Below, piece by piece: positions 2,622 through 30,453 of a DNA stretch of 31,943 nt. This DNA comes from a virus. Every line of letters begins with the position of its first letter. Positions within the stretch are counted from its first letter, which is position 1. The stretch covers positions 1 to 31,943 of the IMG/VR virus record IMGVR_UViG_3300037246_000376; one strand, written 5' to 3'. Made by a program: the position numbers and the translations under genes. The notes under the pieces were generated by a model. The model saw only the letters and a program-made list of their open reading frames with translations, was not told where the DNA came from and made no database searches.

Positions 2622-2651
2622 TTGACACGGCGGATTTTGTTGGCGCATAAT
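2622..2651 (+). promoter_or_regulatory. Sigma70-type promoter of the capsid unit
   Basis: A perfect -35 box TTGACA (2622-2627) is followed after 18 bases by CATAAT (2646-2651), a five-of-six match to the -10 consensus. It lies immediately after the scaffold stop codon, ahead of a 170-base leader and the major capsid gene. Transcription would start around 2657-2659. Having its own promoter would let the host polymerase make the most abundant virion protein in excess of its operon neighbours. Inferred from sequence alone. Confidence 0.65.
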
Positions 2652-2656
2652 CCGCC
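2629..2656. promoter_or_regulatory. Inverted repeat across the capsid promoter -10
   Basis: GGCGGATT (2629-2636) and AATCCGCC (2649-2656) form a perfect 8-bp inverted repeat with a 12-base gap. The right arm covers the last three bases of the -10 box and the left arm sits in the spacer. Because it is mostly upstream of the predicted transcript start, it is better placed to be a dyad operator than an RNA hairpin of that transcript, although read-through RNA could fold it. No binding protein is encoded in this window. Confidence 0.45.
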
Positions 2657-2657
2657 T

Positions 2658-2691
2658 GTGTCCGGCCACCCCGCCTAGCGGCCCCGGACAC
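2658..2691 (+). promoter_or_regulatory. Hairpin at predicted 5' end of capsid mRNA
   Basis: GTGTCCGG (2658-2665) pairs perfectly with CCGGACAC (2684-2691), and inside it CCGC (2671-2674) pairs with GCGG (2678-2681) around a CTA loop. The predicted start of the capsid promoter falls within a base or two of the first stem base. A GC-rich stem at the extreme 5' end is known to shield mRNAs from 5'-end-dependent decay (ompA is the classic case), so the inferred role is mRNA stabilisation. There is no U-tract, so it does not look like a terminator. Confidence 0.55.
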
Positions 2692-2820
2692 GGCACGCCA
2701 AAACACGGCCCTGCCCAGTTTCAAGTCGGCCCCCAGTCACGGGCTACTCCGGCCAAACTGCCAGCAGCTACCCCGATGTTAAGGAATTATTTTTAATCCT
2801 TTTCTATGGGAGAGCTTGTC

Positions 2821-3678
2821 ATGGCAGAAACCGCCTTTCAAATTCAATATAGACAGGAATTCATTGCTGGCTTTGAGCAACTTCAGTCGATCGTGCGTAT
2901 GACGACTACGACTGAGGCTGTTATCAAAGGTAATCAGGCGACATTCCTTATCGCGGATTCTGGGCCGAATGAAACGGCAAAGACTCGCGGTGTTAACGGC
3001 TTGATCCCGGCTCGCGGTGACAACCTGACGCAACCAGTGGCAACTCTGGTTGAATGGCATGATCTGGTCCGTAAGACTGGGTTTAACGTGTTCGCGTCTC
3101 AGGGCAACCAACGGGCGATCATGCAGCAAACATCAATGGGTGTTGTTAATCGAAAGATTGATAACGACATCATCACAGAGCTTGACACGGCTACGCTGAC
3201 AACTGGCGTCGCTGCTGCCCCAAGCCTTTTGATGTGTCTCACGGCTAAGTCTGGTCTCGGCAACAACGATGTTCCGTTCGATGGGAATATCTGCGCGTTG
3301 ATAACTCCGGGGTTCGAGGGCGAGTTGATGGAAAGTGTGCCGCAATTTGCGAGCGCAGATTACATCAACTTGAAGCCTTATCCTGATGCGGGGCCAGCTT
3401 GGGACGACAGCCCCGGATACTGGAAATGGTTGGGCGTGAAATGGATCGTACATCCAAACCTCTCGGGGGCCACCACGGTCTCTGCAACCAATCATATGTA
3501 CCACAAGTCGGCTATCGGCCATGCGTACAACTCGGATGATCTTCAGGCTCTCGCCGGTTACGACGAGGAACAGGATTATTCGTGGGCACGCACGTCGATT
3601 TTCATGGGCTCCCAGATACTACAAAACAGTGGTATCGCCAAGATGCTCACGATCGATAACGTGATGGTACTTTCCTAA
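2821..3678 (+). CDS. Major capsid protein
   Basis: Coat protein of the icosahedral head, HK97-like fold of the podovirus type. Residues AFQIQYRQEFIAGFEQLQS at the start form the N-arm. The core contains conserved-looking stretches such as MGVVNRKIDNDIITEL, a helix in the position of the HK97 spine, PFDGNICALITPGFEGELM, and WLGVKWIVHPNLSG near residue 200, followed by HKSAIGHAYN, all of which recur in capsids of T7-unrelated podoviruses. At 285 residues it is short but within range. I chose ATG 2821 over the in-frame ATG 2806, because GGGAG at 2808-2812 is a Shine-Dalgarno 8 bases before 2821 and would be inside the coding region if 2806 were used. The gene has its own promoter and long leader. 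It lies between the scaffold and a small decoration-like gene. Confidence 0.87.
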   Translation: MAETAFQIQYRQEFIAGFEQLQSIVRMTTTTEAVIKGNQATFLIADSGPNETAKTRGVNGLIPARGDNLTQPVATLVEWHDLVRKTGFNVFASQGNQRAIMQQTSMGVVNRKIDNDIITELDTATLTTGVAAAPSLLMCLTAKSGLGNNDVPFDGNICALITPGFEGELMESVPQFASADYINLKPYPDAGPAWDDSPGYWKWLGVKWIVHPNLSGATTVSATNHMYHKSAIGHAYNSDDLQALAGYDEEQDYSWARTSIFMGSQILQNSGIAKMLTIDNVMVLS

Positions 3679-8038: not shown

Positions 8039-8391
8039 TTGCATGGCGGTACGCAACCGCGGCAGATATCCTAGAGTTTTACGGGAAGCTGCCCCGGCAA
8101 ACGATTCGCGCTATAGTCCTCACAAGGAACGGAGTCCCAGAAGTTATCGGGGGAGTGGCGAGAGACGCGGGCGGCGTGCAGAGGTTCTTTTCGGATCACA
8201 CGGAGAGCATAGTGCCACACCTGAAGTCGATCACAGCCATGCGGGGCCTAAAGGCCCTGATGAAATTGGTTAAGGGGTATCCGGGCGTGGTGTTGGCGAT
8301 TGCACAGGATGACGTTGGCGAAAAGCTACTGACCCGTCTCGGATTTGTTCACATTGATGAGGATGTTTACGCATGGCTTGGTTTGCATTAG
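7972..8391 (+). CDS. GNAT-like (acetyltransferase-fold) phage protein
   Basis: About 139 residues. The conserved-looking domain begins VIAWRYATAADILEFYG (compare the 'iRpAt.aDl..' start of GNATs), has a beta pair VLTRNGVPEVIGGVARDAGG, and ends with KLLTRLGFVHIDEDVYAWLG, the 'L-x-x-x-G-F' strand-turn of GNAT proteins. The acetyl-CoA loop (Q/R-x-x-G-x-G/A) is not obvious. Small GNAT-like proteins occur between TTPB and the internal core genes of several podoviruses; substrate unknown. The start is uncertain. No start codon exists after the TTPB stop, so the gene must begin inside TTPB: ATG 7972 (AAGGA one base upstream), ATG 7951 or GTG 7999 are all possible. The 3' end overlaps the next gene by 19 bases. 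Confidence 0.6.
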   Translation: MLTGVSTEAVSDSNSDSNNRDVIAWRYATAADILEFYGKLPRQTIRAIVLTRNGVPEVIGGVARDAGGVQRFFSDHTESIVPHLKSITAMRGLKALMKLVKGYPGVVLAIAQDDVGEKLLTRLGFVHIDEDVYAWLGLH

Positions 8392-8855
8392 CGTTTAGCG
8401 TTGTATCCGCTGTTGCCGAGGGCTCGGCCGCTAAAAGCGCCGCCGACTCTAAAGCGATACAAATGAGACAGCGCGCCATGTCGGTGCGTGGGTCGGCACA
8501 GCGCGCAGCTCTTGAAGAAAGACGGCAAGCGGATCTGGTTCAGTCCCGCGCTTTAGCGGTGGCCGCCGCTTCCGGCGCCAGTGCAAGTGACAAAGGGATG
8601 CTCGATATCTATGGCGATATCGGCGCAGAGGGAGAATACCGTGCGTTGTCTCAGCTTTGGGAAGGCGACGAAATGGCTCTGGGGCTGCAATACGGTGCCG
8701 ACATCGCGGAGCGAGAGGGGCGGGCCGCTATGACATCGGGGTTGTTGAAAGCTGGCGCCACGGCGTTTGACCAAGGGAGTTCGATGCGGAAAAAATACTC
8801 AAGCAAAACACCGCAGGGAAGCGGAGGCAGCCTTAAAGGATCTTATGGGGATTGA
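8373..8855 (+). CDS. Internal virion protein, T7 gp14-like
   Basis: 160-residue Ala-rich helical protein in the position of T7 gp14 (196 residues), the first ejected core protein, which forms a channel in the outer membrane. Residues 1-22 are a hydrophobic stretch (AWFALAFSVVSAVAEGSAAK). It is followed by a charged coiled segment (SAQRAALEERRQADLVQSRA), the family-typical AAASGASASDKGMLDIYGDI (an 'AASG...S....l..i' core), and a helix ending in a Ser/Gly-rich tail. The N-terminal hydrophobic segment is a plausible membrane insertion element. Translation is probably coupled, since the start lies inside the GNAT-like gene with GAGGA about a dozen bases upstream. Confidence 0.75.
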   Translation: MAWFALAFSVVSAVAEGSAAKSAADSKAIQMRQRAMSVRGSAQRAALEERRQADLVQSRALAVAAASGASASDKGMLDIYGDIGAEGEYRALSQLWEGDEMALGLQYGADIAEREGRAAMTSGLLKAGATAFDQGSSMRKKYSSKTPQGSGGSLKGSYGD

Positions 8856-8861
8856 TGACCG

Positions 8862-10526
8862 ATGCCAGTAATCCCAGACGAAAATGCACTAGGCCGTCGC
8901 CCAGTCCCAGTCTCCCGCCGCGCGATTACAGTTGACCAGAGCGGTGTAATTGTTGCGCGCGCCGCCGTAGAGGCCGGCGCTCAAGTTAGCCAGGCTATTG
9001 CCGCAAAACAGGTTCGAGATGATCGGTTCGCCTACTCGAAGGCGAAATCATCGTTGCTCCGTGCTGATATAGCAATGCGGCGCAAGCTGGAGGAAGAACA
9101 ACCAGACTACGAAAAGTGGGAAGAACAGTACCGAGAAGGAATGAGCGAGGCGCTGGACAACGCTGCTGGGATGATAACCAGCGCGAGCGATAGAGACTTA
9201 TTCCAGTCCGATTCTATGGTGGACATCGATCGTGGCTCCAAGGTGATGTTTGGAAAAGCGTTTGAGCGTGAGACGCAAGACGGCGTAGCCAGCCTTGAAA
9301 GCGATTTGACAGAAAACCGTACCGCTGGATTGCTAGCGTCGGACGTGGACACGCGACGCAGCATCATGGCCAACACGCTTGATAGAATTAACAGCGCATT
9401 AGCCAAGAAGTACATCACGGCCCCGCAGGCCCAAGCGTTACGCGAATCATGGACACAAGACTTCGCCACGGCATACGTGAAGGTGCAGGACGTAGAAGAA
9501 CGTCTGGAAATGCTGGAGAACCCGAAAGGCACGATGGCTGAGTTTCTTGACCCGGACGAACAGGACGTTTTGCTGAAAGCTGCCCGCAGAGAAGATAAAG
9601 ATAACTGGATACGAACAAACGGGCAAGATGCAGCGAACGAGATTCTTAACAGTCGCGGCTCGTTTGACGAACAGATGGCCGCGGCCGAGCGGATCAAGCT
9701 GCCAAAGCGGGAAGAAGCAGCGATCCGAGACGATGTAAAGAACCGGATCAGGCAAGACTTCAACGATACCAAGGCTATTGAAAAAGAGGCCAACGATAAT
9801 CTTTTCCAAGAACTATCCGATAAGATCGAGCTGGGTGAGCTGACCTACGATGAAGTGCAGCAAAATCCTGCATGGATGGAGATACTAGATCAGGGCCAGC
9901 AGAAAACACTAGCGCAGACGCAGCGCGATCGAAACGAGCCAAAGAAAACCGACTGGGCCGAGTGGACTCGGCTTACATTGATGGAGGTTGACGACCCAGA
10001 GGGGTTCAAGAACCTCCAGCCAGAATCGTATCGGCACCTGATGACGCCCACCCAGTACGAAGCGTTTGCCAAGCGCGTACGTGGCTCGCGTGTGCCAGAG
10101 ACATTCAACGCGCCGAATAGCGTGACCAATACAACAATGAAGATGCGCGCGGCTCTTGGCGGAAAAACCAACGTCCTGACAAAAACGGAACGCGGCCGCA
10201 AGCTCACCGCGGAAGTCGTGCGGCGTGTTCACTCCGAGACCATGCGCCGACGTTCTGAAACTGGCCAAGCTGGGTACGAATTATCAGAGCCCGAAACCCA
10301 GGAGATTGTTAATAATTTAATGGTTGAGGTGTCAACGCCTCAATCGGCGTTCTTTGGGCTAATTCAATACTCATCTGATCGAGAAGTATTCAGAGTGATA
10401 GGCGATCTGCCTGATGCTGAGATTAGAGAAATCGAGAGCGCCTTCAAACAGGAGTTCGGTTACACCCCGACGCCGGCAGAAATCTACAATACCTATATCC
10501 AATATCAGCAGCGTCAGAAAAAGTAA
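8862..10526 (+). CDS. Internal virion protein, T7 gp15-like
   Basis: 554-residue, almost wholly helical, highly charged protein in the position of T7 gp15, the periplasmic tube component of the ejection apparatus. The N-terminus (VSRRAITVDQSGVIVARAAVEAG) is followed by long alternating Glu/Lys/Arg/Ala helices, with recurrent segments such as RREDKDNWIRTNGQDAANEI and FDEQMAAAERIKLPKREEAA. The C-terminus reads EFGYTPTPAEIYNTYIQYQQ, typical of the end of gp15-like proteins. No catalytic motif or membrane segment is visible. The family is poorly conserved, so the call rests mainly on order (gp14-like, this gene, giant third protein), size and composition. The stop overlaps the next start by one base (TAATG). 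Confidence 0.65.
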   Translation: MPVIPDENALGRRPVPVSRRAITVDQSGVIVARAAVEAGAQVSQAIAAKQVRDDRFAYSKAKSSLLRADIAMRRKLEEEQPDYEKWEEQYREGMSEALDNAAGMITSASDRDLFQSDSMVDIDRGSKVMFGKAFERETQDGVASLESDLTENRTAGLLASDVDTRRSIMANTLDRINSALAKKYITAPQAQALRESWTQDFATAYVKVQDVEERLEMLENPKGTMAEFLDPDEQDVLLKAARREDKDNWIRTNGQDAANEILNSRGSFDEQMAAAERIKLPKREEAAIRDDVKNRIRQDFNDTKAIEKEANDNLFQELSDKIELGELTYDEVQQNPAWMEILDQGQQKTLAQTQRDRNEPKKTDWAEWTRLTLMEVDDPEGFKNLQPESYRHLMTPTQYEAFAKRVRGSRVPETFNAPNSVTNTTMKMRAALGGKTNVLTKTERGRKLTAEVVRRVHSETMRRRSETGQAGYELSEPETQEIVNNLMVEVSTPQSAFFGLIQYSSDREVFRVIGDLPDAEIREIESAFKQEFGYTPTPAEIYNTYIQYQQRQKK

Positions 10527-13500
10527 TGGCTACGAAATACGATGAAGTCATTGCCAGCGGCGCCGCGGCTGAGCAGCCATCGAATAAGTATGTCTCGATG
10601 CTGCAAGAGGATCAGGAATTCAATACCGCTGTACGCGATCAGTCGATTGCCGGCGCGGCTAAAAAAAATCCCGAGCAGCACGCCAAGGTGGTCGAGCTGT
10701 CGCAGCAAACCGGAATCCCCACTGACATAGTTGAGAAGAAGCAGCCGGAGATCGAGGGGCAGATTCGGGCCAATAAATACACAGAGCTTCTGAAGGACAC
10801 GCCAACACTATCTCGCAAGTATGCGGATAGAGATTTCGCAGCGATGGCGCAGGATGATGTCGAAGGGCTGACGGAGCTGGAGAAAAGCCTACGCGCACCC
10901 GAGCCCAAAGAAATGGGGTTCTGGACAGAATCAGCAGGCCGTCTTGATAAAGGCGTCGCTGTTGTCCAGACATCGCAGATCGGGATTTCTCGGGTGTACG
11001 AACACTTTGGCGTCGGCGGCGGGATTAGCCAAGATTTGTTAGAGCAGCAGAACGCGCGGCTGGCTGAGCTGGCGCCGGCGATGGCATTTGAAGGGCGAGA
11101 ACATTCATGGCTTGGCGGCGTGCCATACATGATTGCTGAGCAGCTTCCGATACAAGCACAGATATTGTCAACTGGAGCAGGAGGGGCGCTGGCATACGCA
11201 ACTGTAGGTGCTGCCGGCGCGCTCGCTTTGGGACAAGCAGGCCCGCAAATTTTAACGCCGGAAGAAATTATTACGGTGCCGGGCGCTGCGGCAGTAATGG
11301 GCATCGCCGGGCTGAAAATTCACTCATTCAAGGGCGCGTTTGAGCTTGAAGGAGGGCTGGCGCAAATAGAATACGCAGAAATGCGCGATGAAAATGGCGT
11401 TGCTCTGAACCCAGATATAGCGAATTCCGCCGCACTTGTAGTCGGTGTGGTGAATGGCTTGCTGGAGTACGCTTCGTGGCGTCTGATAGGACACACATTC
11501 GAAGGTCTGAAGATTGTTACCAAACAAAGAATACGTAAAGCATTGCTAACTGAAACAGGCCGCCAAGCGATTATGACGGTGGCTAGACGGTATGCCGCTG
11601 TAGTTTTAGGTGAGGGCTTACAAGAGGTTGGCCAAGAAGCAAGCACCATTCTTGGCGGCGATATTGCAAAGGCGTTAGATCAGGAGTCGTTCACAGATGC
11701 AACATGGGGCGATGCACTTGAGGGGTTACTAGCGATCCCAGCGGTAGCTGGTGAGGCAGTAGGTATTGGCGAGGCCACAGAAAGACAAAAAGAAATTTTT
11801 GAGCAAGAAAAAGGAGCCTTCAAAGGTGGTACGCAGGCTGGCGTTGGGTTTGCATTTCCGGGAACTGCTACCACAACGGTTCGTGCGGTTGCGCAAGCCA
11901 GACGGGCGGAGTCACAGACACAGATAGAGCAGGGCAAGATCGACAAGCTGGTTGACGTTGCTCAGAATTCCAAGCTCGCTCAAAACTCACCAGAAACCTT
12001 TAACCAGCTCGTTCGCGAGATCGAGGAAGATGCTGGTGCGTTTGCAGATATATATATCACGGCCGAAGAAGCCGCCGGATACCTGGAAGCCGAAGGCGCT
12101 GATGTTTCTGACCCGGACACCCTGAACCCGGTTACATCGGCCATTGCAGATCAGCTTGAACAGGCGCTATCGACTGGCACTGATGTTGTTATCCAGATCG
12201 CTGACTTCATGGCATACGTGCCAAACTCAGATAACTTCCAGTCGCTCCGGGCCCATGTGAAGCTCAGCCAGCGGTCGCTTACGCCAGCAGAGGCCGGCGA
12301 GGCTCAGACCGAGCTGCAAACGCGGCTTAACAAGCTGATGGATGCAGCCAATGAGAACATGGAGATCCACCAGCAGGCGCAGAAGATTTACGAGACTGTC
12401 GAGCAGCAGCTAATTGAGTCTGGAGCCGTGACGCCGGAGACGGCGAAGTACGCTGCACAGATCATCCCGGCCAACGTGGCGCGAACTGCAAACGAATACA
12501 ACGTGTCTGTAGAGTACGTCTATCAAAGGATGGGCCTGAAGATCGTTGGGCCAAGCGCAGCGGCCCCGGTAGCGGCTGCCGAAACTCTTGAGCAGGCGCC
12601 AATCTCAATAGAGGAATTCGAGGGCACTACGCCGCAAGTGGACTTCAATGCTGTCGATAACTACGGCGTCGCATGGAACGCGCGCACAGTTGCCGAGTAC
12701 ATCGGCATCGAGGCCGACGAGCACATATACGAAACAGTGATCGATACGGCAGATCTGGCGCCTGCATTGGTAGAGCAAGAGGACGCCGCTGATATTCGCG
12801 TTGGCAAAGACGATGATGTAATTGACCAGTTTGATCTTGATGAGGCAGAGGATCTTCTGGAACAATTTAATGAGGATGAGTTCCATAAGCCAGAGCTGGA
12901 CGAATGGCGAGATTTTCTAGTCACCGACTATGATGAAGCAGACATCCTCCAGTTAGCGCGTGAGATCACAGCGCGGCGATTCGAGTTCAATGCCGTTGCC
13001 GAGGACTTGGGCTTTCAGGGAGAAAAGGCGCCACCACCGCCAGTCGTCACGCGCAACCCAGACGGCACGTACACGATCGTTGACGGCAATCACAGAATCG
13101 AATACTGGCAAGCGCAGGGGTACGAAGGTATCCCGGTTGTGCTCAACGATCAGAGGGCGAGAGAAGGGGCGCCAGAGACTCTGTTTCAGGAGCCAGTACA
13201 GCCTGATTTGCTAGACCAACCGTTAGCCCCAGAAGGCGTTGTTGAAACGGAAGTCGAAGCACGCGCAGATATGGCTGCTTTGTCGGATATGCTGGGCCCG
13301 CATTTATACGGCAACATGAGTGACATTGCAAAGGTCACGGTTAAAGAGCTGTTCCAGAATTCATTTGACGCTCTGAAGGCATTGATAGAGAAGGAAGGTA
13401 AAACTGATTCAGAGATCAATATAAGCGTGGACTCAAGTTTGAGGACTATCTCAGTCAGCGACAATGGTACTGGGATGACGCCAGAGATAATTCAAAACGC

Positions 13501-16500
13501 GTTTCTTACGCTTGCCGGAACGCATAAAGAAACCAGCCGCCCATCGGGCAGCTTTGGTATTGCCAAAATGCTGTTCTTATTCGGCAATGAGAATTTAACG
13601 CTGGTCACAATTCGCGATGGCGTAAAAACGACTCTCAAAACAACAGGGCCAAACCTGATAAAAAGCTCTACTCCAGGCTCCACTATACCGAAGCCAAAAA
13701 TGTTTTCAGAGCCAACTACGGAAGCAAGCGGAACGACGGTGACAGTAGAAATTCCGTCTGAGTACACTCACCCAAACACCGGCGCGCTGACCTACATTGA
13801 CGCACCTACAACTATGGATGCAAATAATGTACTGAGGCATAGCCCGTTGTTTGAAGATATTGATGTCACTGTGAATGATGTAGGGATGGAAGTTGGGTTG
13901 CGGTTCCCGATCGAGGACTTCGCGCCGTTCGCGACCGTGAAATTTGCATGGGGCACGGCCCGGATTTTAATAAGTAAACAAGAAAAACCCAATCTAACGA
14001 CGAGCTGGAGAAGGAACACACACATTTTGTCGAATGGTCTTTGGCAGTTTAGTACCTCGATGAAACAGAATATGTTTAAGATCGACTCAGACAACATACC
14101 GCGTGAAATATATATAAACGTGGAGCCTTCTGTAACTCCGCGGCAAAACAATTACCCGTTTGATCTTAACCGACAGCGATGGTCTAGCACTGCCGCAGAA
14201 GATATAGAACAGATCGAGCGGTATCTTGGGATCTTATATTTCCAAGCGGACACGGCAGAAATGGCGCAAGGGTTCGGCGGCATCCAGCAAGTAGATAGTT
14301 TCGGTGTTGTGTCTGAGCCTCGCCAATTAGCTCCTGAAGTCACTGACGATATCCGCGAGGATATGCTGGTGATTGACGAAGGCGAACAAATAGAAATAAG
14401 AGACGGCAGAGTATTCGTTAAGGGCAAAGAGGTTCCTGAAATAACTCGCGAAAGCATGGCTGCGGTTAGCGTTGATATCAGCAAGTTCCAAATAGAGCAG
14501 GACGAGGTAGACCCAACCCAGCCAATCATTCATTCCAACATGGTCGTGAAAAAGGAAGGCACGGGATTCCCAGAAGGCACGCCGTTGTTGGATGCGTTAC
14601 GCCAATTGTACCCAGATCGAGCAGACGCGTACCTCACCGGCATTGGCAGAATGGCTATCCAGATAAGGGATCTTGTGCATGAGCATGGTGGCGGAAGATA
14701 CGCGGGCCTGAATAAACTACCAGTGGGAACCAGCTTCGACCATAAATACTTCGGCGTTCACACAGTTGTCCCGTTTAGAGCAATGTTACTTAATCCTGGT
14801 GTGTCATCTGTTGACTTTATGCCCGGCAAGCCCGGCGAGCCTGAAGTGCAACGACTTATTGCTAACAACATGATTATGACAATGGTGCATGAGATTTCTC
14901 ATTTTGTGCAAATGAATCACAGCACCGATTTCATAACAGAAATGCAGGGAGTTATTTCTACACTCGAAACATTCGCTGCTGGAGAAATGGGCGATTTAAG
15001 AGTACAGTTTAATGCCCTGATACGAGACAACTATGATATCTACCGTTACATCAGTACAGTCATCCAAGACGAGCTTGTGGCAAATCTTGGCGTCCGCCTC
15101 CAAGATATCGCTAGTACAGAACCGATTGGAGGCGCAGGCCAGCTTGGAACAACTGCTGCAACAGGCAGAGATAGACAACCTAGAACAAGATTGGATCAAC
15201 CGATTGAAGAAGGGGTTGGCGCTGCTCCAGACATCGGATTCGATGAAGGCGTTTTACGCGGCGCTGAAAGTGCAGGGGATTTAACCTCACCAGCGCCCGG
15301 CAGCATTGACAACGTAGGCGCCGAAGAAGCCGTTGAAATTGACCAACGGATAAAAGATCCAGAAATACTTTACCAGAGCTTCGCCCACGGCGGCCCGGCG
15401 CTATTCGATGCGTTCGATATTGGGTTCCTCGGCACCGGCGAGGGGGCCGCTGCCTTTGGCTGGGGGCTGTACTTTGCCGATCTTGCAGAAACCGCGGAAC
15501 ACTATATGCGAACTGTCGGTGGCGGCAAGCTCACCATCAATGGCAATGACATCAATCTGGATGACAGCGCGCTACACAACATTGGCGTATTGCGCCGGGC
15601 GCTCGGCGGCGCCAATACTAGAATCCCTGATGATGCAAAGCGCGTGCTCGGAGAAGGTGGAGAGCACCTGAAAACAATCCTGTTCGATAACGATATGGCG
15701 GACCTGATTATGGTTGCCATAGAGGCGACTGACAATGCTGGCCCAGAGGCAGCGGTTCGCTGGCTGCGCAACAAAGGCAGAGGGCTGTCAGATACCCTCC
15801 AGCGAGACTTCGTGCCGGCGGAAAACGCGGACCTCGCTGAGCAGGCGTACGCGGATGCGGCAGACGTTCTTGAGCAGCAAGAAGTTGAAGTATCGGAAGG
15901 CCATCTATACGAAGTAGAGATAGACGATGATGTTGTTGATGACTTTCTCGATTACAACGCGCGGTTATCGGACCAGCCCATCGGCGCGTTCTTTGAGGAA
16001 ATTATATCTACCGATCTGAGCGCGGCAGTTAGAGGCGGCACAGTGGTTGGGCTACGCGGCATTGGCGATATGGAAGGGCTTGAAGTCTTGGGTGTTGAGC
16101 TTAGCGATACCGGCGCAGAGTTGTACCGGGCACTGGCTGACACAGATGAGCAGGCATCTAAGCTGTTGTCAGAGCGCGGCATCAAAGGCATGAAGTATTT
16201 TGATGCGTCCGGCGGAGGCCGCGACACCGGCGATGCTGCCGCCAGTCGCAACATCGTTGTATTCGATGACAGCATTATTCAAATCCTGTCGATAGATGGC
16301 GAAGCGGTAAGCGAGAAAGCGCAGAAGAAGATCCGCGAGAATATGCTGGACGAAATGGCTACTTCGATGGAGCTGGCGCAAAAGGCCAAAGATACCGAAG
16401 CAGAGAAGCGCGGCAGCATTTCATTTGATCCCGAGACGCGGGCGGCAACTATCCGGCTCATGCAAGCGGCTGATCTCACCACGTTTCTGCACGAAGCCGG

Positions 16501-19500
16501 GCACCTGTTTCTGGATATGGAGCGCCGGCTGGCGACTGACCCAAGCATAACGACTCCAGAACACCTGAAAAAAGATCATGCGGCGATTCTGAAATTCCTT
16601 GGTGTTGATAGCTGGGAAGCTATCGGCAAAGACCAGCACGAAAAATGGGCCGAGGCGTTCGAGAAGTACTTGGAAGAAGGCCGGGCGCCGAGCGTGGAGT
16701 TACGCGCTGCGTTTCGCCGGTTCGCCGCATGGATCAAGAACGCGTACCGGGCACTGGGCGGGCTGAAGTCTGAGTTAACCCCAGAGATCCGACACGTCAT
16801 GGATCGGATGCTGGCTACCAGCGAGCAGATAGAGGCGGCCGAGGCCGATCTTCACTATGACCCGCTATTTGAGGACGCCGAAGAATCCGGCATGACGCCG
16901 GAGGAATTCGCTGCGTACCGGGCCCGGACTGAACGCGGCACCAACTCGGCAAATGAAAAGCTATTCAAGAAGATTCTCAGCCAGCTTCGACGTAAAACTA
17001 CAAAGCAGTGGAAAGCTGAGCTGGCCAATGTCCGGGCTGAGATCGAGGGCGATCTGTCACAGGAGCCTCTGTACCGTGCCATAACATTTATGCGGGCTAA
17101 GAATCCTCCAGAGGGCTTCGATGCCAACAAGCTAGACCGTAAATTGGTCTATGCAATGATGGGCTTCGCCACGCCGAAGCAGCAGAAGCGCGATCCCAAC
17201 GTAGTTTATGAGGACACTGATCCTCTGTCTGTGGCCATAGCCAAGCTCGGCGGGCTGGACCGCGAGGCAGCCGAGGCCGAGGGCTTCGATCCGGGCTTGT
17301 GGACTGGGCGCTCTGCTGCTGCTGACAATATGATTCTGGTTGGCAAGCCGCTGTTCCGAAAGACCAATGGCCTGTCGTTCTCGCTGATGGCTGAATCACT
17401 GGCTGAGAAGGGCTATCTATCTGAGCCCAGCACCGGCGAGTTGATGGACAAGCTCATGGCGGATCTGGGCGGTGATACGCAATACTCAGAGCGCGTCGAT
17501 TTCAACCTGATATTTGAAGATCCCAACGCTGCCGCTGAGCCGAAGAAACGTCGCATGGCGCCTCGCCAGCTCCGCGGGCTCACTGCGGTAAAGGGCGGGG
17601 CCAATCCAGACACGATAGCAGCTTTGTTTGGCTTCGCTTCAGGCCGGGATCTGGTAGATGCGATCGTATCCAATCCCACGCTCTCGCAGGCGGTGAGCGC
17701 CGCTGCTGAGCGAACCATGACAGAGCGACACGGAGACATCCTGAATGACGGAACACTTGAAGCAGAGGCCCAGGAAGCGGCTCACAACACAGACAGGGGC
17801 GCCGTTATCCTCGACGAGCTGAAGGCGCTGAACAAGCTGTCCGGCACAGAGGCAGCCGTGAACCAGCGACGAGCTGCCAGAGACGCGGCAGAACGAACAA
17901 TTGCCAGAAAACGGATCACCGGACTCCGGCCTGACCTATATCGGAAAGCTGAGATCCGGGCCGCAACAGAGGCCGAAGCTGCCAAGATCGCTGGAAACGT
18001 AGATGAGGCACAGGCCGCCAAGCAGAAGCAATACCTGAACTATCACCTGTGGCGTGAGGCGACCAAGGCCAAAGAAAAAGCCGAGGCGATTCGCCGGCAG
18101 CTCAAGGTCATGCAGACCAAGACATACACAGCGCGCGAATCTAACCCTGAATACACGGCTCGATTCAAGATGCTGCTGGCAGCCTACGATTTCAACCGTA
18201 GCAACCGCGCGGCTCGCGAGCAGGCGAAGGTGCAGCTCGACGCGCTGAAAGCATGGATCGAGGAACACCAAGACGATATCAATACCGATGCCACAATCGT
18301 TGAGAGCGACATCATCAACCGCGTCATGCACTACCGGGATATGACGCTGGACGATCTGATGGCGGTACGGGATATGGCGGTGAGCCTGCGCCACGCCGGC
18401 AAGAGGGCCAATGCTGCTGAAATGAAGGCGTACAACGATGAAATGGATCTGCTGGCCATCAATGTAGCGGAGAAAACCAAAGGCAAGAAGCCTCTGGCCA
18501 GAGAGCGCACGCCGATACGTAAGGCTCGCGAGGCAGCAAGATCCATATTCGCCGCGCACCGTAAGACTGAAAGCCTGATTCGTGAAGCGGATGGGTTTCA
18601 GGATCTAGGCCCGCTGTGGAAACGGGTAATCCAGCCGTTACTTGAGGCCGCTAACAGACAGATAGCCATGCAGGAAAAGGCCCACGACGCGCTGGGAGAT
18701 ATATTCAAGGGACACGAAGCGGCGCTGCGCACGACACATGATCGCCGTACTTTCACACTGGAGAGTGGCGAGAAACTACGCCTGTCACTCGGCGGTCGGT
18801 TGGTTATCGCGCTGAACTGGGGGAATGAGGGCAACCGTGAGGCGATGTTGAATCAGGCTCACCAGCCCATGACCGAGGGCGATATCAACAAGATCCTAGC
18901 CACGCTCTCAGACACCAATTGGGATACGGTTGAGTCAATCTGGGAGTACCTGGATAACGAATACTGGCCGCAGATTGCGGAGCTTGAGAAGCGTATGACT
19001 GGCGTATCTCCGCCGCGTGTCGAAGCTATACCTTTCCAATTAGCCAGTGGCAGAATCATGCGCGGCGGCTACTACCCAATCATTGGCGATCCATCTATCG
19101 ACTGGCAACAGTTCGACCAGGATGTAACCGAGCGGGCCGAAAGGCTCAAGAAGGGTGGAATCGGCCGGGCCGCCACAGCTCACGGTCATACAATCGCGCG
19201 TATTGGTTGGGGTGGCAAGGCCGTTAGCGTAGGCATCGATGGGCTGTTTAGCCATCTTGATACTGTCATTCACGATCTGACTCACCGCGAGGCCGTGCGC
19301 CAAGCCGATCGTGTGCTGGGACACAAGAGCGTACGGGATGCTCTGACCACGGCGCTGGGCCGAGAGGCTGTTTCGTCGATGCGACACAGGCTGGCAGAAG
19401 TCGCCTCCGGGCACCGGCCGCCTAGTGAACTGGCGATTACCCAGCGGGTATTCCGTTGGGCACGTCTAGGCTTAACGTATTCGGCGCTTGGGTTTTCGCT

Positions 19501-20494
19501 GAAAACTGGTGTCACACAGATGCTCGGGCTCGGCGTGGCGATCTCGGAGTTTGGTCCGGCGATGGTTCTGAAGGGGATCATGGATTTCTACTCTAATCCG
19601 ATCACCAATACGAAATTCATAAAAGAACGCTCTGTGTATATGCGCGATCGCGTTAGCACCATGAACCGGGATACCGGAGCAATACTACGGACCCTTCGTG
19701 GCAAAACGACATGGAACGCGCTAAAGGAAAAATCCTTTATGTTCCTGCTGGCTGGCGATCTGGCTGTGTCGCGCCCGTTGTGGTGGGCAGCGTACACTAA
19801 GGGTATGGACCGCGCTGCATCAACCGCCAAAGAGGATTCGGGATTTCAGAACGAGCAGGATGCAATCAACTTTGCTGACCGTGCTGTATCTCGTACGCAG
19901 CAGAGCGGTATGCTCATGGATCTCTCGGGGGTTGAGGACAAAAACGAGTTTGTGAAAATGTGGACCGTAATGTACTCAGCCTTCAGTGCCATCTACAATA
20001 TCACCACTGAGCAGACCAAGAAGGTAAGGGTTGGCAAGATCAATAAAGTTCAATACACCTACGCGCTTATGTGGGTCATTGTGATCCCGGCGTTGATTGA
20101 AGAACTGACAATGGGGTTCGATGATCGTGGCGACGAGGATGATGAAAATTTCTTTTTCAATAAGTGGACGCGGGCTGTTGCATCTTATTCACTGGCCACG
20201 ATGTTTCTGCTTCGCGAGCTATCCTGGACGATGCGCTCTGGTGAGGCCAGCAAGCTACCAATTCAACGATTGATAGAAGCTGTGCCAAATCTTGTAACGC
20301 AACTTGAGCAAGGAGAGCTGGACAGCGCGGCAGTGCGTGCTGTATCCACATTAGTATCTACAGGCGCCCATATTCCCGGCGGTTCTCAAGCGACGCGCTC
20401 GATAAACTACCTTATCGCTCTTGATGAAGGCACCGAAGAAGGGTTTAATCCGTGGGAGTTTCTTATCACGGGCCCGAGAGAGGATGAGGAATAG
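10526..20494 (+). CDS. Giant polyvalent internal virion protein (T7 gp16 position)
   Basis: 3322 residues in the place of T7 gp16, so probably packed in the head and ejected first. Domains in order: Ala/Gly-rich hydrophobic segment (207-240); helix EGLQEVGQEAST (363-374) typical of phage polyvalent proteins; ParB/sulfiredoxin-like VDGNHR (852-857); GHKL ATPase with N-box ELFQN (941-945), G1 DNGTGM (979-984), G2 GSFGIAK (1008-1014) and T-box GTT (1069-1071), running to about 1170; zincin HEISH (1455-1459) with E1516 a possible third ligand; polyvalent-type ADP-ribosyltransferase (1616-1920) with FGWGLYF at 1644-1650; second zincin HEAGH (1989-1993); long charged helices to about 2750; C-terminal domain with a hydrophobic stretch near 3180-3195. 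I see no lytic transglycosylase motif. The start overlaps the preceding stop. Individual motifs are seen; target and function are inference. Confidence 0.85.
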   Translation: MATKYDEVIASGAAAEQPSNKYVSMLQEDQEFNTAVRDQSIAGAAKKNPEQHAKVVELSQQTGIPTDIVEKKQPEIEGQIRANKYTELLKDTPTLSRKYADRDFAAMAQDDVEGLTELEKSLRAPEPKEMGFWTESAGRLDKGVAVVQTSQIGISRVYEHFGVGGGISQDLLEQQNARLAELAPAMAFEGREHSWLGGVPYMIAEQLPIQAQILSTGAGGALAYATVGAAGALALGQAGPQILTPEEIITVPGAAAVMGIAGLKIHSFKGAFELEGGLAQIEYAEMRDENGVALNPDIANSAALVVGVVNGLLEYASWRLIGHTFEGLKIVTKQRIRKALLTETGRQAIMTVARRYAAVVLGEGLQEVGQEASTILGGDIAKALDQESFTDATWGDALEGLLAIPAVAGEAVGIGEATERQKEIFEQEKGAFKGGTQAGVGFAFPGTATTTVRAVAQARRAESQTQIEQGKIDKLVDVAQNSKLAQNSPETFNQLVREIEEDAGAFADIYITAEEAAGYLEAEGADVSDPDTLNPVTSAIADQLEQALSTGTDVVIQIADFMAYVPNSDNFQSLRAHVKLSQRSLTPAEAGEAQTELQTRLNKLMDAANENMEIHQQAQKIYETVEQQLIESGAVTPETAKYAAQIIPANVARTANEYNVSVEYVYQRMGLKIVGPSAAAPVAAAETLEQAPISIEEFEGTTPQVDFNAVDNYGVAWNARTVAEYIGIEADEHIYETVIDTADLAPALVEQEDAADIRVGKDDDVIDQFDLDEAEDLLEQFNEDEFHKPELDEWRDFLVTDYDEADILQLAREITARRFEFNAVAEDLGFQGEKAPPPPVVTRNPDGTYTIVDGNHRIEYWQAQGYEGIPVVLNDQRAREGAPETLFQEPVQPDLLDQPLAPEGVVETEVEARADMAALSDMLGPHLYGNMSDIAKVTVKELFQNSFDALKALIEKEGKTDSEINISVDSSLRTISVSDNGTGMTPEIIQNAFLTLAGTHKETSRPSGSFGIAKMLFLFGNENLTLVTIRDGVKTTLKTTGPNLIKSSTPGSTIPKPKMFSEPTTEASGTTVTVEIPSEYTHPNTGALTYIDAPTTMDANNVLRHSPLFEDIDVTVNDVGMEVGLRFPIEDFAPFATVKFAWGTARILISKQEKPNLTTSWRRNTHILSNGLWQFSTSMKQNMFKIDSDNIPREIYINVEPSVTPRQNNYPFDLNRQRWSSTAAEDIEQIERYLGILYFQADTAEMAQGFGGIQQVDSFGVVSEPRQLAPEVTDDIREDMLVIDEGEQIEIRDGRVFVKGKEVPEITRESMAAVSVDISKFQIEQDEVDPTQPIIHSNMVVKKEGTGFPEGTPLLDALRQLYPDRADAYLTGIGRMAIQIRDLVHEHGGGRYAGLNKLPVGTSFDHKYFGVHTVVPFRAMLLNPGVSSVDFMPGKPGEPEVQRLIANNMIMTMVHEISHFVQMNHSTDFITEMQGVISTLETFAAGEMGDLRVQFNALIRDNYDIYRYISTVIQDELVANLGVRLQDIASTEPIGGAGQLGTTAATGRDRQPRTRLDQPIEEGVGAAPDIGFDEGVLRGAESAGDLTSPAPGSIDNVGAEEAVEIDQRIKDPEILYQSFAHGGPALFDAFDIGFLGTGEGAAAFGWGLYFADLAETAEHYMRTVGGGKLTINGNDINLDDSALHNIGVLRRALGGANTRIPDDAKRVLGEGGEHLKTILFDNDMADLIMVAIEATDNAGPEAAVRWLRNKGRGLSDTLQRDFVPAENADLAEQAYADAADVLEQQEVEVSEGHLYEVEIDDDVVDDFLDYNARLSDQPIGAFFEEIISTDLSAAVRGGTVVGLRGIGDMEGLEVLGVELSDTGAELYRALADTDEQASKLLSERGIKGMKYFDASGGGRDTGDAAASRNIVVFDDSIIQILSIDGEAVSEKAQKKIRENMLDEMATSMELAQKAKDTEAEKRGSISFDPETRAATIRLMQAADLTTFLHEAGHLFLDMERRLATDPSITTPEHLKKDHAAILKFLGVDSWEAIGKDQHEKWAEAFEKYLEEGRAPSVELRAAFRRFAAWIKNAYRALGGLKSELTPEIRHVMDRMLATSEQIEAAEADLHYDPLFEDAEESGMTPEEFAAYRARTERGTNSANEKLFKKILSQLRRKTTKQWKAELANVRAEIEGDLSQEPLYRAITFMRAKNPPEGFDANKLDRKLVYAMMGFATPKQQKRDPNVVYEDTDPLSVAIAKLGGLDREAAEAEGFDPGLWTGRSAAADNMILVGKPLFRKTNGLSFSLMAESLAEKGYLSEPSTGELMDKLMADLGGDTQYSERVDFNLIFEDPNAAAEPKKRRMAPRQLRGLTAVKGGANPDTIAALFGFASGRDLVDAIVSNPTLSQAVSAAAERTMTERHGDILNDGTLEAEAQEAAHNTDRGAVILDELKALNKLSGTEAAVNQRRAARDAAERTIARKRITGLRPDLYRKAEIRAATEAEAAKIAGNVDEAQAAKQKQYLNYHLWREATKAKEKAEAIRRQLKVMQTKTYTARESNPEYTARFKMLLAAYDFNRSNRAAREQAKVQLDALKAWIEEHQDDINTDATIVESDIINRVMHYRDMTLDDLMAVRDMAVSLRHAGKRANAAEMKAYNDEMDLLAINVAEKTKGKKPLARERTPIRKAREAARSIFAAHRKTESLIREADGFQDLGPLWKRVIQPLLEAANRQIAMQEKAHDALGDIFKGHEAALRTTHDRRTFTLESGEKLRLSLGGRLVIALNWGNEGNREAMLNQAHQPMTEGDINKILATLSDTNWDTVESIWEYLDNEYWPQIAELEKRMTGVSPPRVEAIPFQLASGRIMRGGYYPIIGDPSIDWQQFDQDVTERAERLKKGGIGRAATAHGHTIARIGWGGKAVSVGIDGLFSHLDTVIHDLTHREAVRQADRVLGHKSVRDALTTALGREAVSSMRHRLAEVASGHRPPSELAITQRVFRWARLGLTYSALGFSLKTGVTQMLGLGVAISEFGPAMVLKGIMDFYSNPITNTKFIKERSVYMRDRVSTMNRDTGAILRTLRGKTTWNALKEKSFMFLLAGDLAVSRPLWWAAYTKGMDRAASTAKEDSGFQNEQDAINFADRAVSRTQQSGMLMDLSGVEDKNEFVKMWTVMYSAFSAIYNITTEQTKKVRVGKINKVQYTYALMWVIVIPALIEELTMGFDDRGDEDDENFFFNKWTRAVASYSLATMFLLRELSWTMRSGEASKLPIQRLIEAVPNLVTQLEQGELDSAAVRAVSTLVSTGAHIPGGSQATRSINYLIALDEGTEEGFNPWEFLITGPREDEE

Positions 20495-20497
20495 GTT

Positions 20498-21361
20498 ATG
20501 GCCGGTACTCGCAAAGATCGATTAGGCGGTGTCTCCACCAGTGTTGCCGTCAAGGCTCCGGTTGTCACTGTGAGCACGGCCAACCTCACGCTGTCTGGCC
20601 ATCAGACCGTCAACAGCATCGCTCTTGTTTCCGGCGATCGGGTGCTGGTCAAAGATCAGACCGCCGCTATCGAAAACGGGATCTACAACGTCGATACCTC
20701 GGCATGGCAACGTGCCGTAGATTTTGACGGCAACCGCGATGTTGTAGAAGGGACGCTGATAATCGTCGTTGAAGATGGCGGCCTGTATACGCTGTACCGG
20801 GTAAATTCAAGTGACCCGATGACCATTGGCGTAACCCCGATAACCTTCGTGTTGTATGGCGGCATAACCGACACCGATGCAATTCACGATAACGTGTCTG
20901 GAGAGATCACGGCGATCTCCGGGAAACCCAGTCCAGTGGCCGCGGATGTCCTGCTTGGTGAGGATTCAGAGTCAGGCGATTCCAAAATAAAAATCGAAAT
21001 TGGCAATTTGCCCGACTCTGACGCTGGGCCAAAGGTTCTAACCCTGCCCAAACCCACGAATAGCGAGGATTTGACGCTGCTGTTTTTCAATAAAGCCGTC
21101 ACTCTGACGCAGATTCGGGCCGTACTGCCGAACGGTACTGGCAGCCCCAGCATCACGTACCAGATCAAGCACCACACCGATCGGAGCAATGCCGGGAATA
21201 ACGGCACGGCCAGTACCGTCGTCACTTCGACAACGACCGGAACCAATGCTACTCTCAGCGATGCCACGATCCCGGCTGATTCATGGGTATGGGTTGTTAC
21301 CACGGCAAAAGGTGGTACAGTACCGTCATTCGTGATCGTGTTGTTCTATGACGAAGATTGA
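20498..21361 (+). CDS. Tail fibre protein with adaptor N-terminus, copy 1
   Basis: 287 residues. The first 90 form the domain found at the virion end of many phage fibres: DRLGGVSTSVAVKAPV, GHQTVNSIALVSGDRVLVKD, ENGIYNVDTSAWQRA and FDGNRDVVEGT. A second copy opens the fibre at 28415. The middle is a linker (AIHDNVSGEITAISGKPSP). The C-terminal 110 residues form a beta-rich domain (VLPNGTGSPSITYQIKHHTD, then Ser/Thr-rich strands ending FVIVLFYDED) that resembles a compact receptor- or sugar-binding fold. The ribosome site GAGGA lies 7 bases before the ATG. Attachment through the N-terminus is known for the family; the role of the C-terminal tip is inference. Confidence 0.8.
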   Translation: MAGTRKDRLGGVSTSVAVKAPVVTVSTANLTLSGHQTVNSIALVSGDRVLVKDQTAAIENGIYNVDTSAWQRAVDFDGNRDVVEGTLIIVVEDGGLYTLYRVNSSDPMTIGVTPITFVLYGGITDTDAIHDNVSGEITAISGKPSPVAADVLLGEDSESGDSKIKIEIGNLPDSDAGPKVLTLPKPTNSEDLTLLFFNKAVTLTQIRAVLPNGTGSPSITYQIKHHTDRSNAGNNGTASTVVTSTTTGTNATLSDATIPADSWVWVVTTAKGGTVPSFVIVLFYDED

Positions 21362-22474: not shown

Positions 22475-22816
22475 GTGTGGCACAAAAAGTTCTACATCAC
22501 TTATGTAGACGGCGAGGTTATACACCTTACCTCTGCTGAGTGGCCCGATGTACGGGCGGACGGTGTTGACCGAATAGACTTCGGCTGTGTGCAACGCACA
22601 GGTGACAGTATCTATTATCTCTACCCAGAAAAAATCACGGACTCAGGCGAAATGGCTTGGGTCTGTGGTTCGTTTGCGGTATATCAGAATACCTGCGAAG
22701 AAAGCATCATGCGAGTGAACGGCGAAGTTCTTGGCCGTACGCGCCGATCTATGCCTGACATCAAACACAACCAGATAAAACTTGGTTGGTGGAGAAGGCA
22801 AGATGCCGGCAATTAA
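22475..22816 (+). CDS. Hypothetical protein with GTG start
   Basis: 113 residues with many aromatic residues and Cys (residues 38, 64, 73). It reads MWHKKFYITYVDGEVIHLTS, then ADGVDRIDFGC and GDSIYYLYPEK, and ends in a basic Trp-rich tail. The frame upstream reaches the stop of the preceding gene at 22460-22462, and the only start between is GTG 22475, preceded at 9 bases by AAGAG. An ATG at 22470 is in another frame. It overlaps the giant fibre gene by 14 bases, so it may couple translation of that gene. Function unknown. Confidence 0.55.
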   Translation: MWHKKFYITYVDGEVIHLTSAEWPDVRADGVDRIDFGCVQRTGDSIYYLYPEKITDSGEMAWVCGSFAVYQNTCEESIMRVNGEVLGRTRRSMPDIKHNQIKLGWWRRQDAGN

Positions 22817-25800
22817 ATTTCAACAAACGGATATTACTGCAGGAGAAGGGTGTGCCGTAGGCACAATTGCATGTGCCGGCGGATCAGTCACTTCTGAAAC
22901 ACCTCAAAGAACCGTTCTATATGAAGAAGGGGCCGCCGCCGGATCTAATGAACTTACCGTAACGATTGGCAATGGCGAAAGCCTAGTTGTAGGGATGAAT
23001 ATGGCCTTGGGCACTCGCCCTGGTTCTTCCGGCCAAGTAGCACTTCACAGCGGTACACATATTTTTCGATTGAACGTCACAAGTTCCGGCAGCAATCTGA
23101 CACTGGAAGAAGTACATATATGTCGGGTCACACAAGGCTGCTCTAATCAAGAATCATTGGGTAGCACAACGGGCATTGGCGAAAGTCTGGGTAGCACTGG
23201 TGTCAAGGAAGTAAACATTACTCAATCCGGCTCGTCTACGCTTGCGGCCACCGAAAAAATTATTTACATATGTAAATTTACCAACTCTCACGATCACGCC
23301 AATCGAAGTTTTGGATACACGCAAGATCAGTTAATTGACACGCCGTATTTGCGTAGCGACGCATCTGGCACACCAAGTATTGCGTTACTAACCGCCAGTG
23401 GCGCTGCCGAACTACCGAAAGAAGGCTCCGGTACTCCATCAATAGCGGGACCAACTACGTCTGGCGTCGCAATTGCTCGAAGCCATCTGCGCACTGCGAG
23501 CGGCACGCCACAACTCGAAGCAGACCCAGCGCGCATTGTAGTAATCAAGCGAAACAGTGGCGGGCGTCTTTGGCCTCCCCAACCACTTATTTTAGATAAA
23601 CAGAATTTTTTTGGGAGTAGGTGTAATTACGCTTTACTTCCTGGACAAGATATTCAGCACTCAGGCGCTCCAGCAGTGCGCGACGTTCCGCGAAACATCA
23701 GGTACTTCCTAGAACAAGTGCCCAGCTCAGGATCTACTGCAACTAGCGAGCCTAGAATTATAACCGCCGGACATTTAGGCGCTGTACCGGCGATGTTTAT
23801 GGAGCCAGTCGATGACGACGATTTTCTCCGATGGGTTTCTCCAGATCCAGGTATGGGGTCCGACTTCAATGGCCCTCTGCCAATAACAGTTTTCGCGCTG
23901 TTCATTCCGACTGGCAATGGCATAGTCGGGGGTTCCACTCAGTCCTATATATGGAGTCTTGCAAATCCTGACGGTTCTCCAAGTGCTGATCTGTATATAA
24001 CAACCCTTGCAGCAGGCGGCGATCGAATACAAGTAGGCGCTAGATTAAGTACCTTACGTGTTAAAGAAACCTCATTTGGCAGCCTGAAACCTGACGCTTT
24101 GAATTTAGCAGTGCTGAGTGTTGGTAACTCCGCGCTTGGTACTGAGATATCAGCATATATATTAAATGAGGACGGCTTTGCCACGTCCAGCGGCGGTGAC
24201 TTTGCAGAAACCTATTCACCCAGACTATCCCTGAACGCAGCAGGAATTGGGGGGGAGCTAGGAACGTCCAGCCAATCCGATCACCCGTTTGCTGGCGGTC
24301 TAATTGGTGTTTGGGCTTTTAGGGGGCTATCTTTACGGGAAAGCGTTAGCGTAGCCCGAGCTGAAAAAATAATTCGACGGTTCTGGGCGAACCCGTGGCA
24401 AACATTCGAGCAACGACCGCGCCTAATGGTGCCAGTGTTGGGGCAGGCCCTTCTGCCTGCGTCTGGCACAGCCACTACCCCGCCGAAAGAATTTGCATCC
24501 GGCACCCCATCGATAGCCATACCAACTACGTCTGGTGCGGCGAAAGTCCGTAAGTCCGCCAGCGGTACTCCTACAGTTTCAGGAACCATAACCCTAACAG
24601 TTGTACACGACACACCGAGAACTGACTGGCCAGATGTCCCAACGGAATTTAATAAGGCCAATTACTTTGGTAGTAAATGCGTATGGGCGATGATTCCTGG
24701 GTGGGGTCATGTTGATAATTTTTCTGGCTCCGTTAAATCATCCGGGCATAAATTAAACCTTGACGCAAGCGAGGTAGGTACTGGATCGTCATTCGATACG
24801 GCGACTGTCAATGCTAAGCGGATTGGCGGTATACGTACTATCTCCAGCGCCCCGGTTGATGGAACAAACTTCGGCCGGCTGTCCGTTGGGGCTGGGCGGC
24901 ACCCGCCATTCGATTTCCCAAGCGACCAATTTACGATAATCGCAATAATAAAGCCGAATGGCGATGGCCTCGCTCCGGGCCAAACGGAAGCCTGTATTTT
25001 TGCTAAGGCCCTTGGATCGGCCACTGCTGATTTTGACCTAAAACTTGGGCTTGGCACGGCTACTGGTGTCACGGTTCAGACACGCGTGCGACAAGACACA
25101 ACAGTTCGGGAAGTAACTATAGGCGGCATATCTGTTGTTATCCAGAATGATGCGCTGAACTTTATGGCGCTTGAGGTCACTATTGTTGGGAGTGGAGGAA
25201 GGAATCGAGGATACCACTTAACAGAAGAAGGCAACTTTATAGATGGTTCCATTCAGAGCGCGGGTGTTTGGAATCCCCGTACAACCACAAGCCTTGGCCT
25301 GTATGGTAATCCAGCAGCAGCATCCGAGCCTTTCGATGGGGAGATTCTAGGCATTTGGGCGTTCGATAACCTGCGATTATCAGAAGCTCTTTGTCGTAAC
25401 TTCTTTGCAGATCCTTCGCAGGTATTCAAAGGCCAAAGGATCTTAATACCTATTGAGAAAAAAACCTCCCCGCTTAATTCTTCTGGCTCAGCCACAATTG
25501 CAAGTCCGTTAGCCTTGCTCCCAAGGAATATACCAGTTCCGGCGTTCGGCGGTTCGTTCCACGATAACACTGCGGATGAACTACTAAGAACGCAATTTCC
25601 GACTTTCGATCACACCGGCACGTACACGATCTCGTTCTGGGTACGTGTTGGTAGTGATGATCGTGCGGAAACAACCAGAACTTGGATAGCCGGCGCTAAC
25701 ACGGATGGCGGCAATGCCGTTTGGGCTGTAAGTCAGGGGGTATCGACCAACGGCCTTATATTATCGCAGCCGACCAACGAAATTGTCCTTGCTAACGGTA

Positions 25801-30399: not shown

Positions 30400-30453
30400 C
30401 TCGAAATAGACCCTAATTTGTGTCACCCTTGGGCTCCGACACGGGAGAAAGGC

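What the first reader, a model, noticed from the sequence alone, without database searches (positions are those of the whole stretch)
10526..20494. A 3322-residue ejected-protein candidate carrying at least five effector-type modules
Seen: VDGNHR, a full set of GHKL boxes, two HExxH motifs, an FGWGLYF ART motif and C-terminal virion-type sequence in one frame, in the T7 gp16 position. Known: phage and conjugative-element polyvalent proteins combine such domains and are thought to enter the recipient cell. Inferred: this phage injects one chain acting on host DNA-binding proteins, proteases or nucleotide metabolism. The mix (ATPase plus two proteases plus ADP-ribosylation) is unusual in its breadth.
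Basis: partly seen in the sequence, partly recalled or inferred. Interest (0 to 1): 0.82.

Follow-up and report, generated by a model that had tools for sequence, protein, structure and literature searches.

The report
Phage giant protein with ATPase-linked protease
This phage gene encodes a giant protein, probably injected with the DNA, whose conserved frame carries a swappable set of effector domains; one of them, an Hsp90-like ATPase joined to a Wss1/Spartan-like protease, seems undescribed, occurs in well over a hundred viral metagenome sequences, and was not found in any isolated phage searched.

Summary
The 3,322-aa frame (10526-20494) is real. It is the homologue of Bordetella phage BPP-1 Bbp10, in a podovirus structural cassette (portal, capsid, tail A/B, internal virion protein, Bbp11-like, then this gene). 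Comparison with 16 GenBank and 80 IMG/VR relatives shows a conserved chassis (residues 1-~676 and ~1950-3322) around one insertion slot that varies from 21 to 2,246 aa. Across relatives the slot holds known polyvalent-protein effectors (ART, PBECR nucleases, GNAT, GGDEF, RadC). The second HExxH (1989) is part of the chassis: it is present in every intact relative and belongs to the published CLCA_X zincins. In this window the slot holds a GHKL ATPase plus transducer fused to a WLM/SprT-type zincin (HExxHxxxxxH), then an ART-PolyVal domain. The VDGNHR (ParB-like) region could not be verified. The ATPase-zincin dyad is one unit: relatives in 185 IMG/VR stretches, moved between unrelated giant proteins, sometimes stand-alone, and not found in 50,697 isolate phage records, plasmids or the literature searched. 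Best reading: a known kind of protein carrying a new cargo, an ATP-gated protease.

The parts
10526..20494 (+). giant ORF, 3322 aa, Bbp10-type giant internal virion protein
   Evidence: phrog_9880 E 6e-292; BLAST to 16 phages
10526..12553 (+). N-terminal chassis, residues 1-676
   Evidence: N1 (1-175) found in 64 relatives and N3 (440-690) in 54
10640..10900 (+). LPD22 domain, residues 39-125
   Evidence: Pfam PF18834, 70.7 bits, E 1.3e-19
12554..16417 (+). cargo slot, residues 677-1964
   Evidence: 21 aa in Vibrio phage MZH0603 and up to 2246 aa in relatives, median 540; effector domains in slot of relatives
12788..13225 (+). ParB-like candidate with VDGNHR (13079-13096), unverified
   Evidence: Pfam ParB_N E 0.13, NCBIfam Noc E 0.019, no relatives, AF2 pLDDT about 30-60
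13238..13825 (+). GHKL ATPase domain, residues 905-1100
   Evidence: Pfam HATPase_c_3; HtpG E 2e-14 by profile; AF2 pLDDT mostly >85 and Foldseek to Hsp90/TRAP1 E 3.5e-12
13823..14425 (+). transducer-like middle domain, residues 1100-1300, with Arg1216 conserved 45/45
14513..15100 (+). WLM/SprT-type zincin of the dyad, HEISHFVQMNHSTDF at 14888-14932
   Evidence: WLM hits in 20/37 members, YgjP 15/37, SprT 6/37; Wss1p E 0.0012 by profile against PDB; HExxH 68/68, third His 64/68 in a second set of loci
15341..16315 (+). ART-PolyVal domain, residues 1606-1930; His in AHGGP 15383-15397, FGWGLYF 15455-15475
   Evidence: PF18760 E 0.0016, below cut-off; about 15 relatives share it
16418..16825 (+). 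chassis zincin (CLCA_X type), HEAGH 16490-16504 and invariant Glu2039
   Evidence: invariant H, E, H, E in A1 and A5; present in all relatives that reach this region; AF2 pLDDT >85
16373..20491 (+). C-terminal chassis, residues 1950-3322
   Evidence: aligned in 16 phages and in 80 IMG/VR loci
8373..8855 (+). internal virion protein (Bbp12/gp14-like), neighbour
   Evidence: phrog_418 E 2.6e-17
8862..10526 (+). Bbp11-like protein, neighbour; matches only the C-terminal part of phrog_10475
   Evidence: BPP-1 gene order

Best explanation
The protein is the giant internal virion (ejection) protein of a BPP-1-like podovirus, built as a conserved chassis with one effector slot. It is packaged with the DNA and enters the cell with it (inferred). 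The chassis zincin sits directly after the slot and probably cuts or releases the cargo (inferred). In this phage the cargo is a GHKL-transducer-zincin dyad followed by an ART, with a possible ParB-like domain in front. The dyad most likely works as an ATP-gated protease: ATP binding closes a GHKL dimer, with Arg1216 of the transducer as the gamma-phosphate sensor, and this positions a Wss1/Spartan-like protease on its substrate. By analogy with Wss1/SPRTN (proteases that digest DNA-bound proteins) and MORC/GyrB/Hsp90 (ATP-driven clamps), I favour host proteins bound to DNA, for example on the incoming phage genome, as targets (about 0.3 for that step). The ART would modify host proteins, as T4 Alt does. 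Shown here by computation: chassis, slot, domain identities, and the dyad as one conserved unit. Not shown: ejection, proteolysis, ATP gating, targets.
For: Same gene order as BPP-1. Chassis conserved in 16 isolates and 80 viral contigs. Slot length 21-2246 aa, filled by ART-PolyVal in 19/55, PBECR5 in 6, GNAT in 5, PBECR1 in 3, GGDEF, RadC. The dyad aligns end to end across giants that share no chassis, needs at least two changes between chassis on the tree, and exists as 530-730-aa stand-alone genes. Catalytic residues: Q944, N945, D948, D979, G981, K1001, K1014, R1216 in 45/45 and E941 in 44/45. In a second set of 68 dyads picked by GHKL patterns, 68/68 have HExxH and 64/68 the third His. 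AF2 pLDDT mostly >85 over the dyad. Foldseek to Hsp90, MORC2, GyrB. Zincin profile to Wss1p, WLM, SPRTN. A dyad giant in L118 lies next to a DNA ejection protein homologue.
Against: No virion proteomics was found for this protein or any Bbp10 homologue. The zincin-to-Wss1 similarity is modest (E 0.0012) and covers mainly the motif helix. GHKL similarity is general, so Hsp90-like, MORC-like and gyrase-like modes are not told apart. The ParB-like region is unverified, the ART model is poor, and the chassis zincin has no significant PDB match.
Confidence: 0.62

Rival explanations
1. The dyad is an assembly or self-processing device: the ATPase-protease matures the giant protein or other virion proteins before or during packaging, and is not an effector.
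For: P1 DdrB is processed before packaging and Iyer et al. propose autoproteolysis for polyvalent zincins (PMC5512222). The dyad is nearly always inside giant proteins.
Against: Chassis relatives do without the dyad (one search finds HATPase in only 2/55 slots), while the chassis zincin is always there and is the better candidate for processing. The dyad also occurs as stand-alone genes.
Confidence: 0.18
2. The GHKL part is an Hsp90-like chaperone that refolds the ejected giant after passage through the narrow tail, and the zincin trims it.
For: Best structural and sequence matches are Hsp90/HtpG/TRAP1. Large ejected proteins must refold (general knowledge).
Against: Most relatives with the same chassis have no dyad; similarity extends also to MORC2 and GyrB.
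Confidence: 0.1
3. The gene is a lysis protein, as annotated in some relatives ('lysis protein', 'lysin', 'crystallin motif').
For: Annotations in H1, H2, H33; OANV1 gp16 in PMC9239159.
Against: No peptidoglycan hydrolase domain found by Pfam, PHROGs or NCBIfam in the protein; a separate holin-like gene lies at 30418-30855.
Confidence: 0.04
4. The cargo modules are decayed remnants without activity.
For: ART scores below the Pfam cut-off.
Against: GHKL, zincin and ART motif residues are intact, and the frame is open over 10 kb.
Confidence: 0.06

Closest known systems
Bordetella phage BPP-1 Bbp10 and PHROG 9880
   Same: Same gene position and order, same N and C chassis, same HExxH with downstream Glu
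   Different: Bbp10 has only about 175 aa in the slot; the window has about 1,290 aa with ATPase, protease and ART
Polyvalent proteins (Iyer et al. 2017, PMC5512222)
   Same: Large phage protein with ART, zincin and LPD domains; same effector families in the slot of relatives
   Different: The paper's main text does not mention GHKL, HSP90, WLM or SprT; the ATPase-zincin dyad is not described there
CLCA_X zincins (Lenart et al. 2013, PMC3650047)
   Same: The chassis zincin: Bbp10 residues 700-1000 was a seed of that family
   Different: Nothing for the chassis zincin; zincin 1 of the dyad is a different, WLM/SprT-like type
Wss1 / SPRTN / WLM-SprT proteases
   Same: HExxHxxxxxH(D/S)xxF motif and helix context; profile matches Wss1p and SPRTN
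   Different: Here fused behind a GHKL-transducer ATPase in a phage giant protein; no known WLM/SprT protein with a GHKL domain was found
RIIA proteins of T4-like phages
   Same: Phage GHKL ATPase with N and middle domains; Foldseek and tblastn neighbours
   Different: RIIA is a separate protein with a variable C-terminal domain (PMC7824862), not a giant structural-cassette protein

Membership tests
Bbp10-type giant internal virion protein (PHROG 9880) | C-terminal core of about 1,370 aa with HExxH...E zincin | tested here: met
   (E 6e-292), A1
Bbp10-type giant internal virion protein (PHROG 9880) | Position after internal virion protein and Bbp11-like gene, before tail fibre | tested here: met
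Bbp10-type giant internal virion protein (PHROG 9880) | Presence in virions and ejection | not testable with these tools
   no proteomics found
Polyvalent protein | Several domains of unrelated activities in one phage protein | tested here: met
   GHKL, two zincins, ART, LPD22
Polyvalent protein | Delivered into the host with the DNA | not testable with these tools
   inference from position only
GHKL ATPases | Bergerat fold with N, G1, G2, G3 boxes | tested here: met
Hsp90 family proper | Match to an Hsp90 equivalog model above its cut-off | tested here: not met
   NCBIfam PRK14083 41.8 bits against cut-off 455; match limited to the N-terminal region
WLM/SprT-like zincins | HExxH plus third His and profile match above Pfam cut-off | tested here: inconclusive
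   motif met; WLM best E 6.3e-6 in 20/37 members; window member below cut-off (14.0 against 26 bits)
ART-PolyVal (PF18760) | His-Tyr active-site signature and Pfam match above cut-off | tested here: inconclusive
   signature met and aligned with relatives; Pfam 19.7 bits against 31.2
DdrB-type ParB nuclease | ParB/Srx fold with conserved Arg | tested here: inconclusive
   VDGNHR only; E 0.13, low pLDDT, no relatives
CLCA_X zincins | Homology to Bbp10 residues 700-1000 | tested here: met
   BLAST to BPP-1 772-1024 at 39%; PMC3650047

The most novel reading that the evidence does not exclude
The GHKL-WLM/SprT dyad is a new class of ATP-gated metalloprotease, spread among uncultured phages as a cassette of injected proteins. 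It would act as a clamp-protease that strips host proteins from DNA at the moment of infection, a phage counterpart of Wss1/Spartan driven by an Hsp90/MORC-type ATPase.
Probability: 0.25. Interest if true: 0.85.

Novelty: new variant of a known kind. Interest (0 to 1): 0.62.

Why it matters
It gives a clear rule for reading this large phage family: a fixed chassis with its own zincin and a single effector slot, so the slot contents can be read as the phage's first-strike toolkit. It also adds a two-domain ATPase-protease that appears absent from described polyvalent proteins and from sequenced isolates, yet has relatives in at least 185 stretches of a viral metagenome collection. If it cuts host proteins under ATP control, it would be a new type of injected phage enzyme and a possible protein tool.

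Tried and rejected
Close-relative scans with single sequences of the core, the GHKL part and the ParB-like part found nothing; the alignment scans succeeded. A ParB-like identity was sought by Pfam, NCBIfam, phmmer, viral scan and AF2 without support. T7 gp16 membership is not claimed: the match is gene order only. A defence-system reading was rejected: PADLOC gave no match for the window's dyad. Plasmids hold no dyad, only GHKL fragments. The AF2 model of the ART and chassis zincin gave no significant PDB match. Early regular-expression counts were wrong or incomplete, first from a mistyped pattern and then from missing the DNARGM variant of box G1; the corrected count is. A search of bacterial phyla failed because no genome handle was available.

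Full report
Observation. Two HExxH motifs are unlikely by chance in a protein of this composition (0.2% of shuffles). No near DNA-level relative of the first 25 kb exists among 50,697 phage records. The source record is a 31,943-base virus contig.

What the gene is. Neighbouring genes match portal/head-tail adaptor, major head protein, tail proteins A and B, internal virion protein phrog_418, and a protein like the C-terminal part of BPP-1 Bbp11. The order is that of Bordetella phage BPP-1, where the next gene is bbp10. The giant matches phrog_9880 with E 6e-292 and 43 isolate phage records by tblastn. The 16 relatives compared are 1,902 to 4,012 aa long.

Chassis and slot. BLAST, phmmer and alignment show two conserved parts: residues 1 to about 676, including LPD22, and about 1950 to 3322. 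In Vibrio phage MZH0603 only 21 aa separate them. Over 61 complete proteins the gap is 21 to 2,246 aa, median 540; here it is about 1,290. Pfam scans of 55 slots find ART-PolyVal in 19, PBECR5 in 6, GNAT in 5, PBECR1 in 3, HATPase in 2, and GGDEF, RadC and PARP once each. ARTs, PBECR nucleases, GNATs, GGDEF and RadC are effector types catalogued for polyvalent proteins (PMC5512222, section list). So the slot is an effector bay.

The second HExxH is chassis. HEAGH at 1989 lies in the C chassis. The motif is present in all relatives that reach this region, with invariant H, E, H and Glu2039. The same region of Bbp10 (residues 700-1000) was a seed of the CLCA_X zincin family (PMC3650047). Its fixed place next to the slot suggests processing or release of the cargo; that is inference.

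The dyad. phmmer with residues 900-1300 and 1290-1560 hit the same three relatives (L019, L020, L021) in the same order. A scan with their alignment found 55 viral loci. The large proteins among them carry the whole unit, with HExxHxxxxxH at the same profile position in nearly all. Only some have the BPP-1 chassis, and there the unit may sit in the slot or near the N terminus (L100), so it moves as a cassette. A tree needs at least two changes of chassis. Small stand-alone dyads of 532 to 732 aa exist (L134-L139, L142), some of them in neighbourhoods with a portal gene and a DarB-type helicase. A second scan from another clade gave 185 relatives. Among 68 distinct dyads picked through GHKL patterns, all 68 keep HExxH and 64 the third His; 31 carry DNARGM in place of DNGxGM. 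Genome contigs gave one locus, a 6-kb MAG contig. Plasmids and isolate phages gave only partial GHKL matches.

Folds. AF2 with 39 sequences gives pLDDT mostly above 85 over residues 930 to 1515. Foldseek matches Hsp90/TRAP1, MORC2 and GyrB, E down to 3.5e-12. In BFVD one uncharacterised viral protein matches over 652 columns at 36% identity; RIIA and other GHKL proteins follow. The zincin profile matches Wss1p (E 0.0012), a fission-yeast WLM protease (0.007), proabylysin and SPRTN. Pfam WLM is hit by 20 of 37 members and YgjP-like by 15. The catalytic residues of both halves are conserved.

ART and ParB. The ART signature (AHGGP, TGEGAAAFGWGLYF) aligns with relatives, although the Pfam score in this protein is below cut-off and the model is poor. 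The VDGNHR region remains unverified.

Mechanism. I favour an ejected chassis that delivers an ATP-gated protease and an ART. The ATP gate rests on the conserved GHKL boxes and Arg1216. The choice of DNA-bound proteins as substrates is an analogy with Wss1/SPRTN and MORC and is weak. Packaging and ejection were not tested.

Literature. Iyer et al. 2017 does not mention GHKL, HSP90, WLM or SprT in its main text. The jumbo-phage survey describes GHKL in topoisomerases and RIIA, and SprT-like proteases separately. Full-text searches for the combination found no description. The library holds open-licence papers only, so an earlier description elsewhere cannot be excluded.

Noticed in passing
window 8862-10526: The Bbp11-like protein (554 aa) matches only the C-terminal part of phrog_10475. 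BPP-1 Bbp11 is annotated with a soluble transglycosylase, but no such domain was detected here or in the giant, so the peptidoglycan-cutting enzyme of entry is not identified.
   Followed up: partly
window 20498-21361 and 28415-30001: Two ORFs share an N-terminal domain (both match the start of phrog_14824), probably a virion attachment domain used by two different fibre or spike proteins.
   Followed up: no
window 22782-28400: 1,872-aa ORF with a weak Laminin_G_3 match and no PHROG match; probably a large host-recognition protein.
   Followed up: no
L020/L122 (IMGVR_UViG_3300010430_000285): Relative with a 4,686-aa giant; its slot holds the dyad and, further on, a stretch with a PPCTSFA motif like C5 cytosine methyltransferases.
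   Followed up: no
L155-L234: A large subclade of dyads reads DNARGM in the GHKL G1 box, with Ala for the usual first Gly; four members have another residue in place of the third His.
   Followed up: partly
L009 (PQ492659, Limnohabitans phage DC33): The record is classified as Inoviridae but carries a BPP-1-like giant-protein cassette; the taxonomy label looks wrong.
   Followed up: no
L013 (BK063671, vir555): A virus recorded with a Methanomicrobiales host carries the same chassis (phrog_9880) and an ART, so the system may extend to archaeal viruses.
   Followed up: no
L137, L142: Stand-alone ATPase-zincin dyad genes lie in neighbourhoods with a portal gene and a large DarB-type helicase (phrog_62).
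   Followed up: partly
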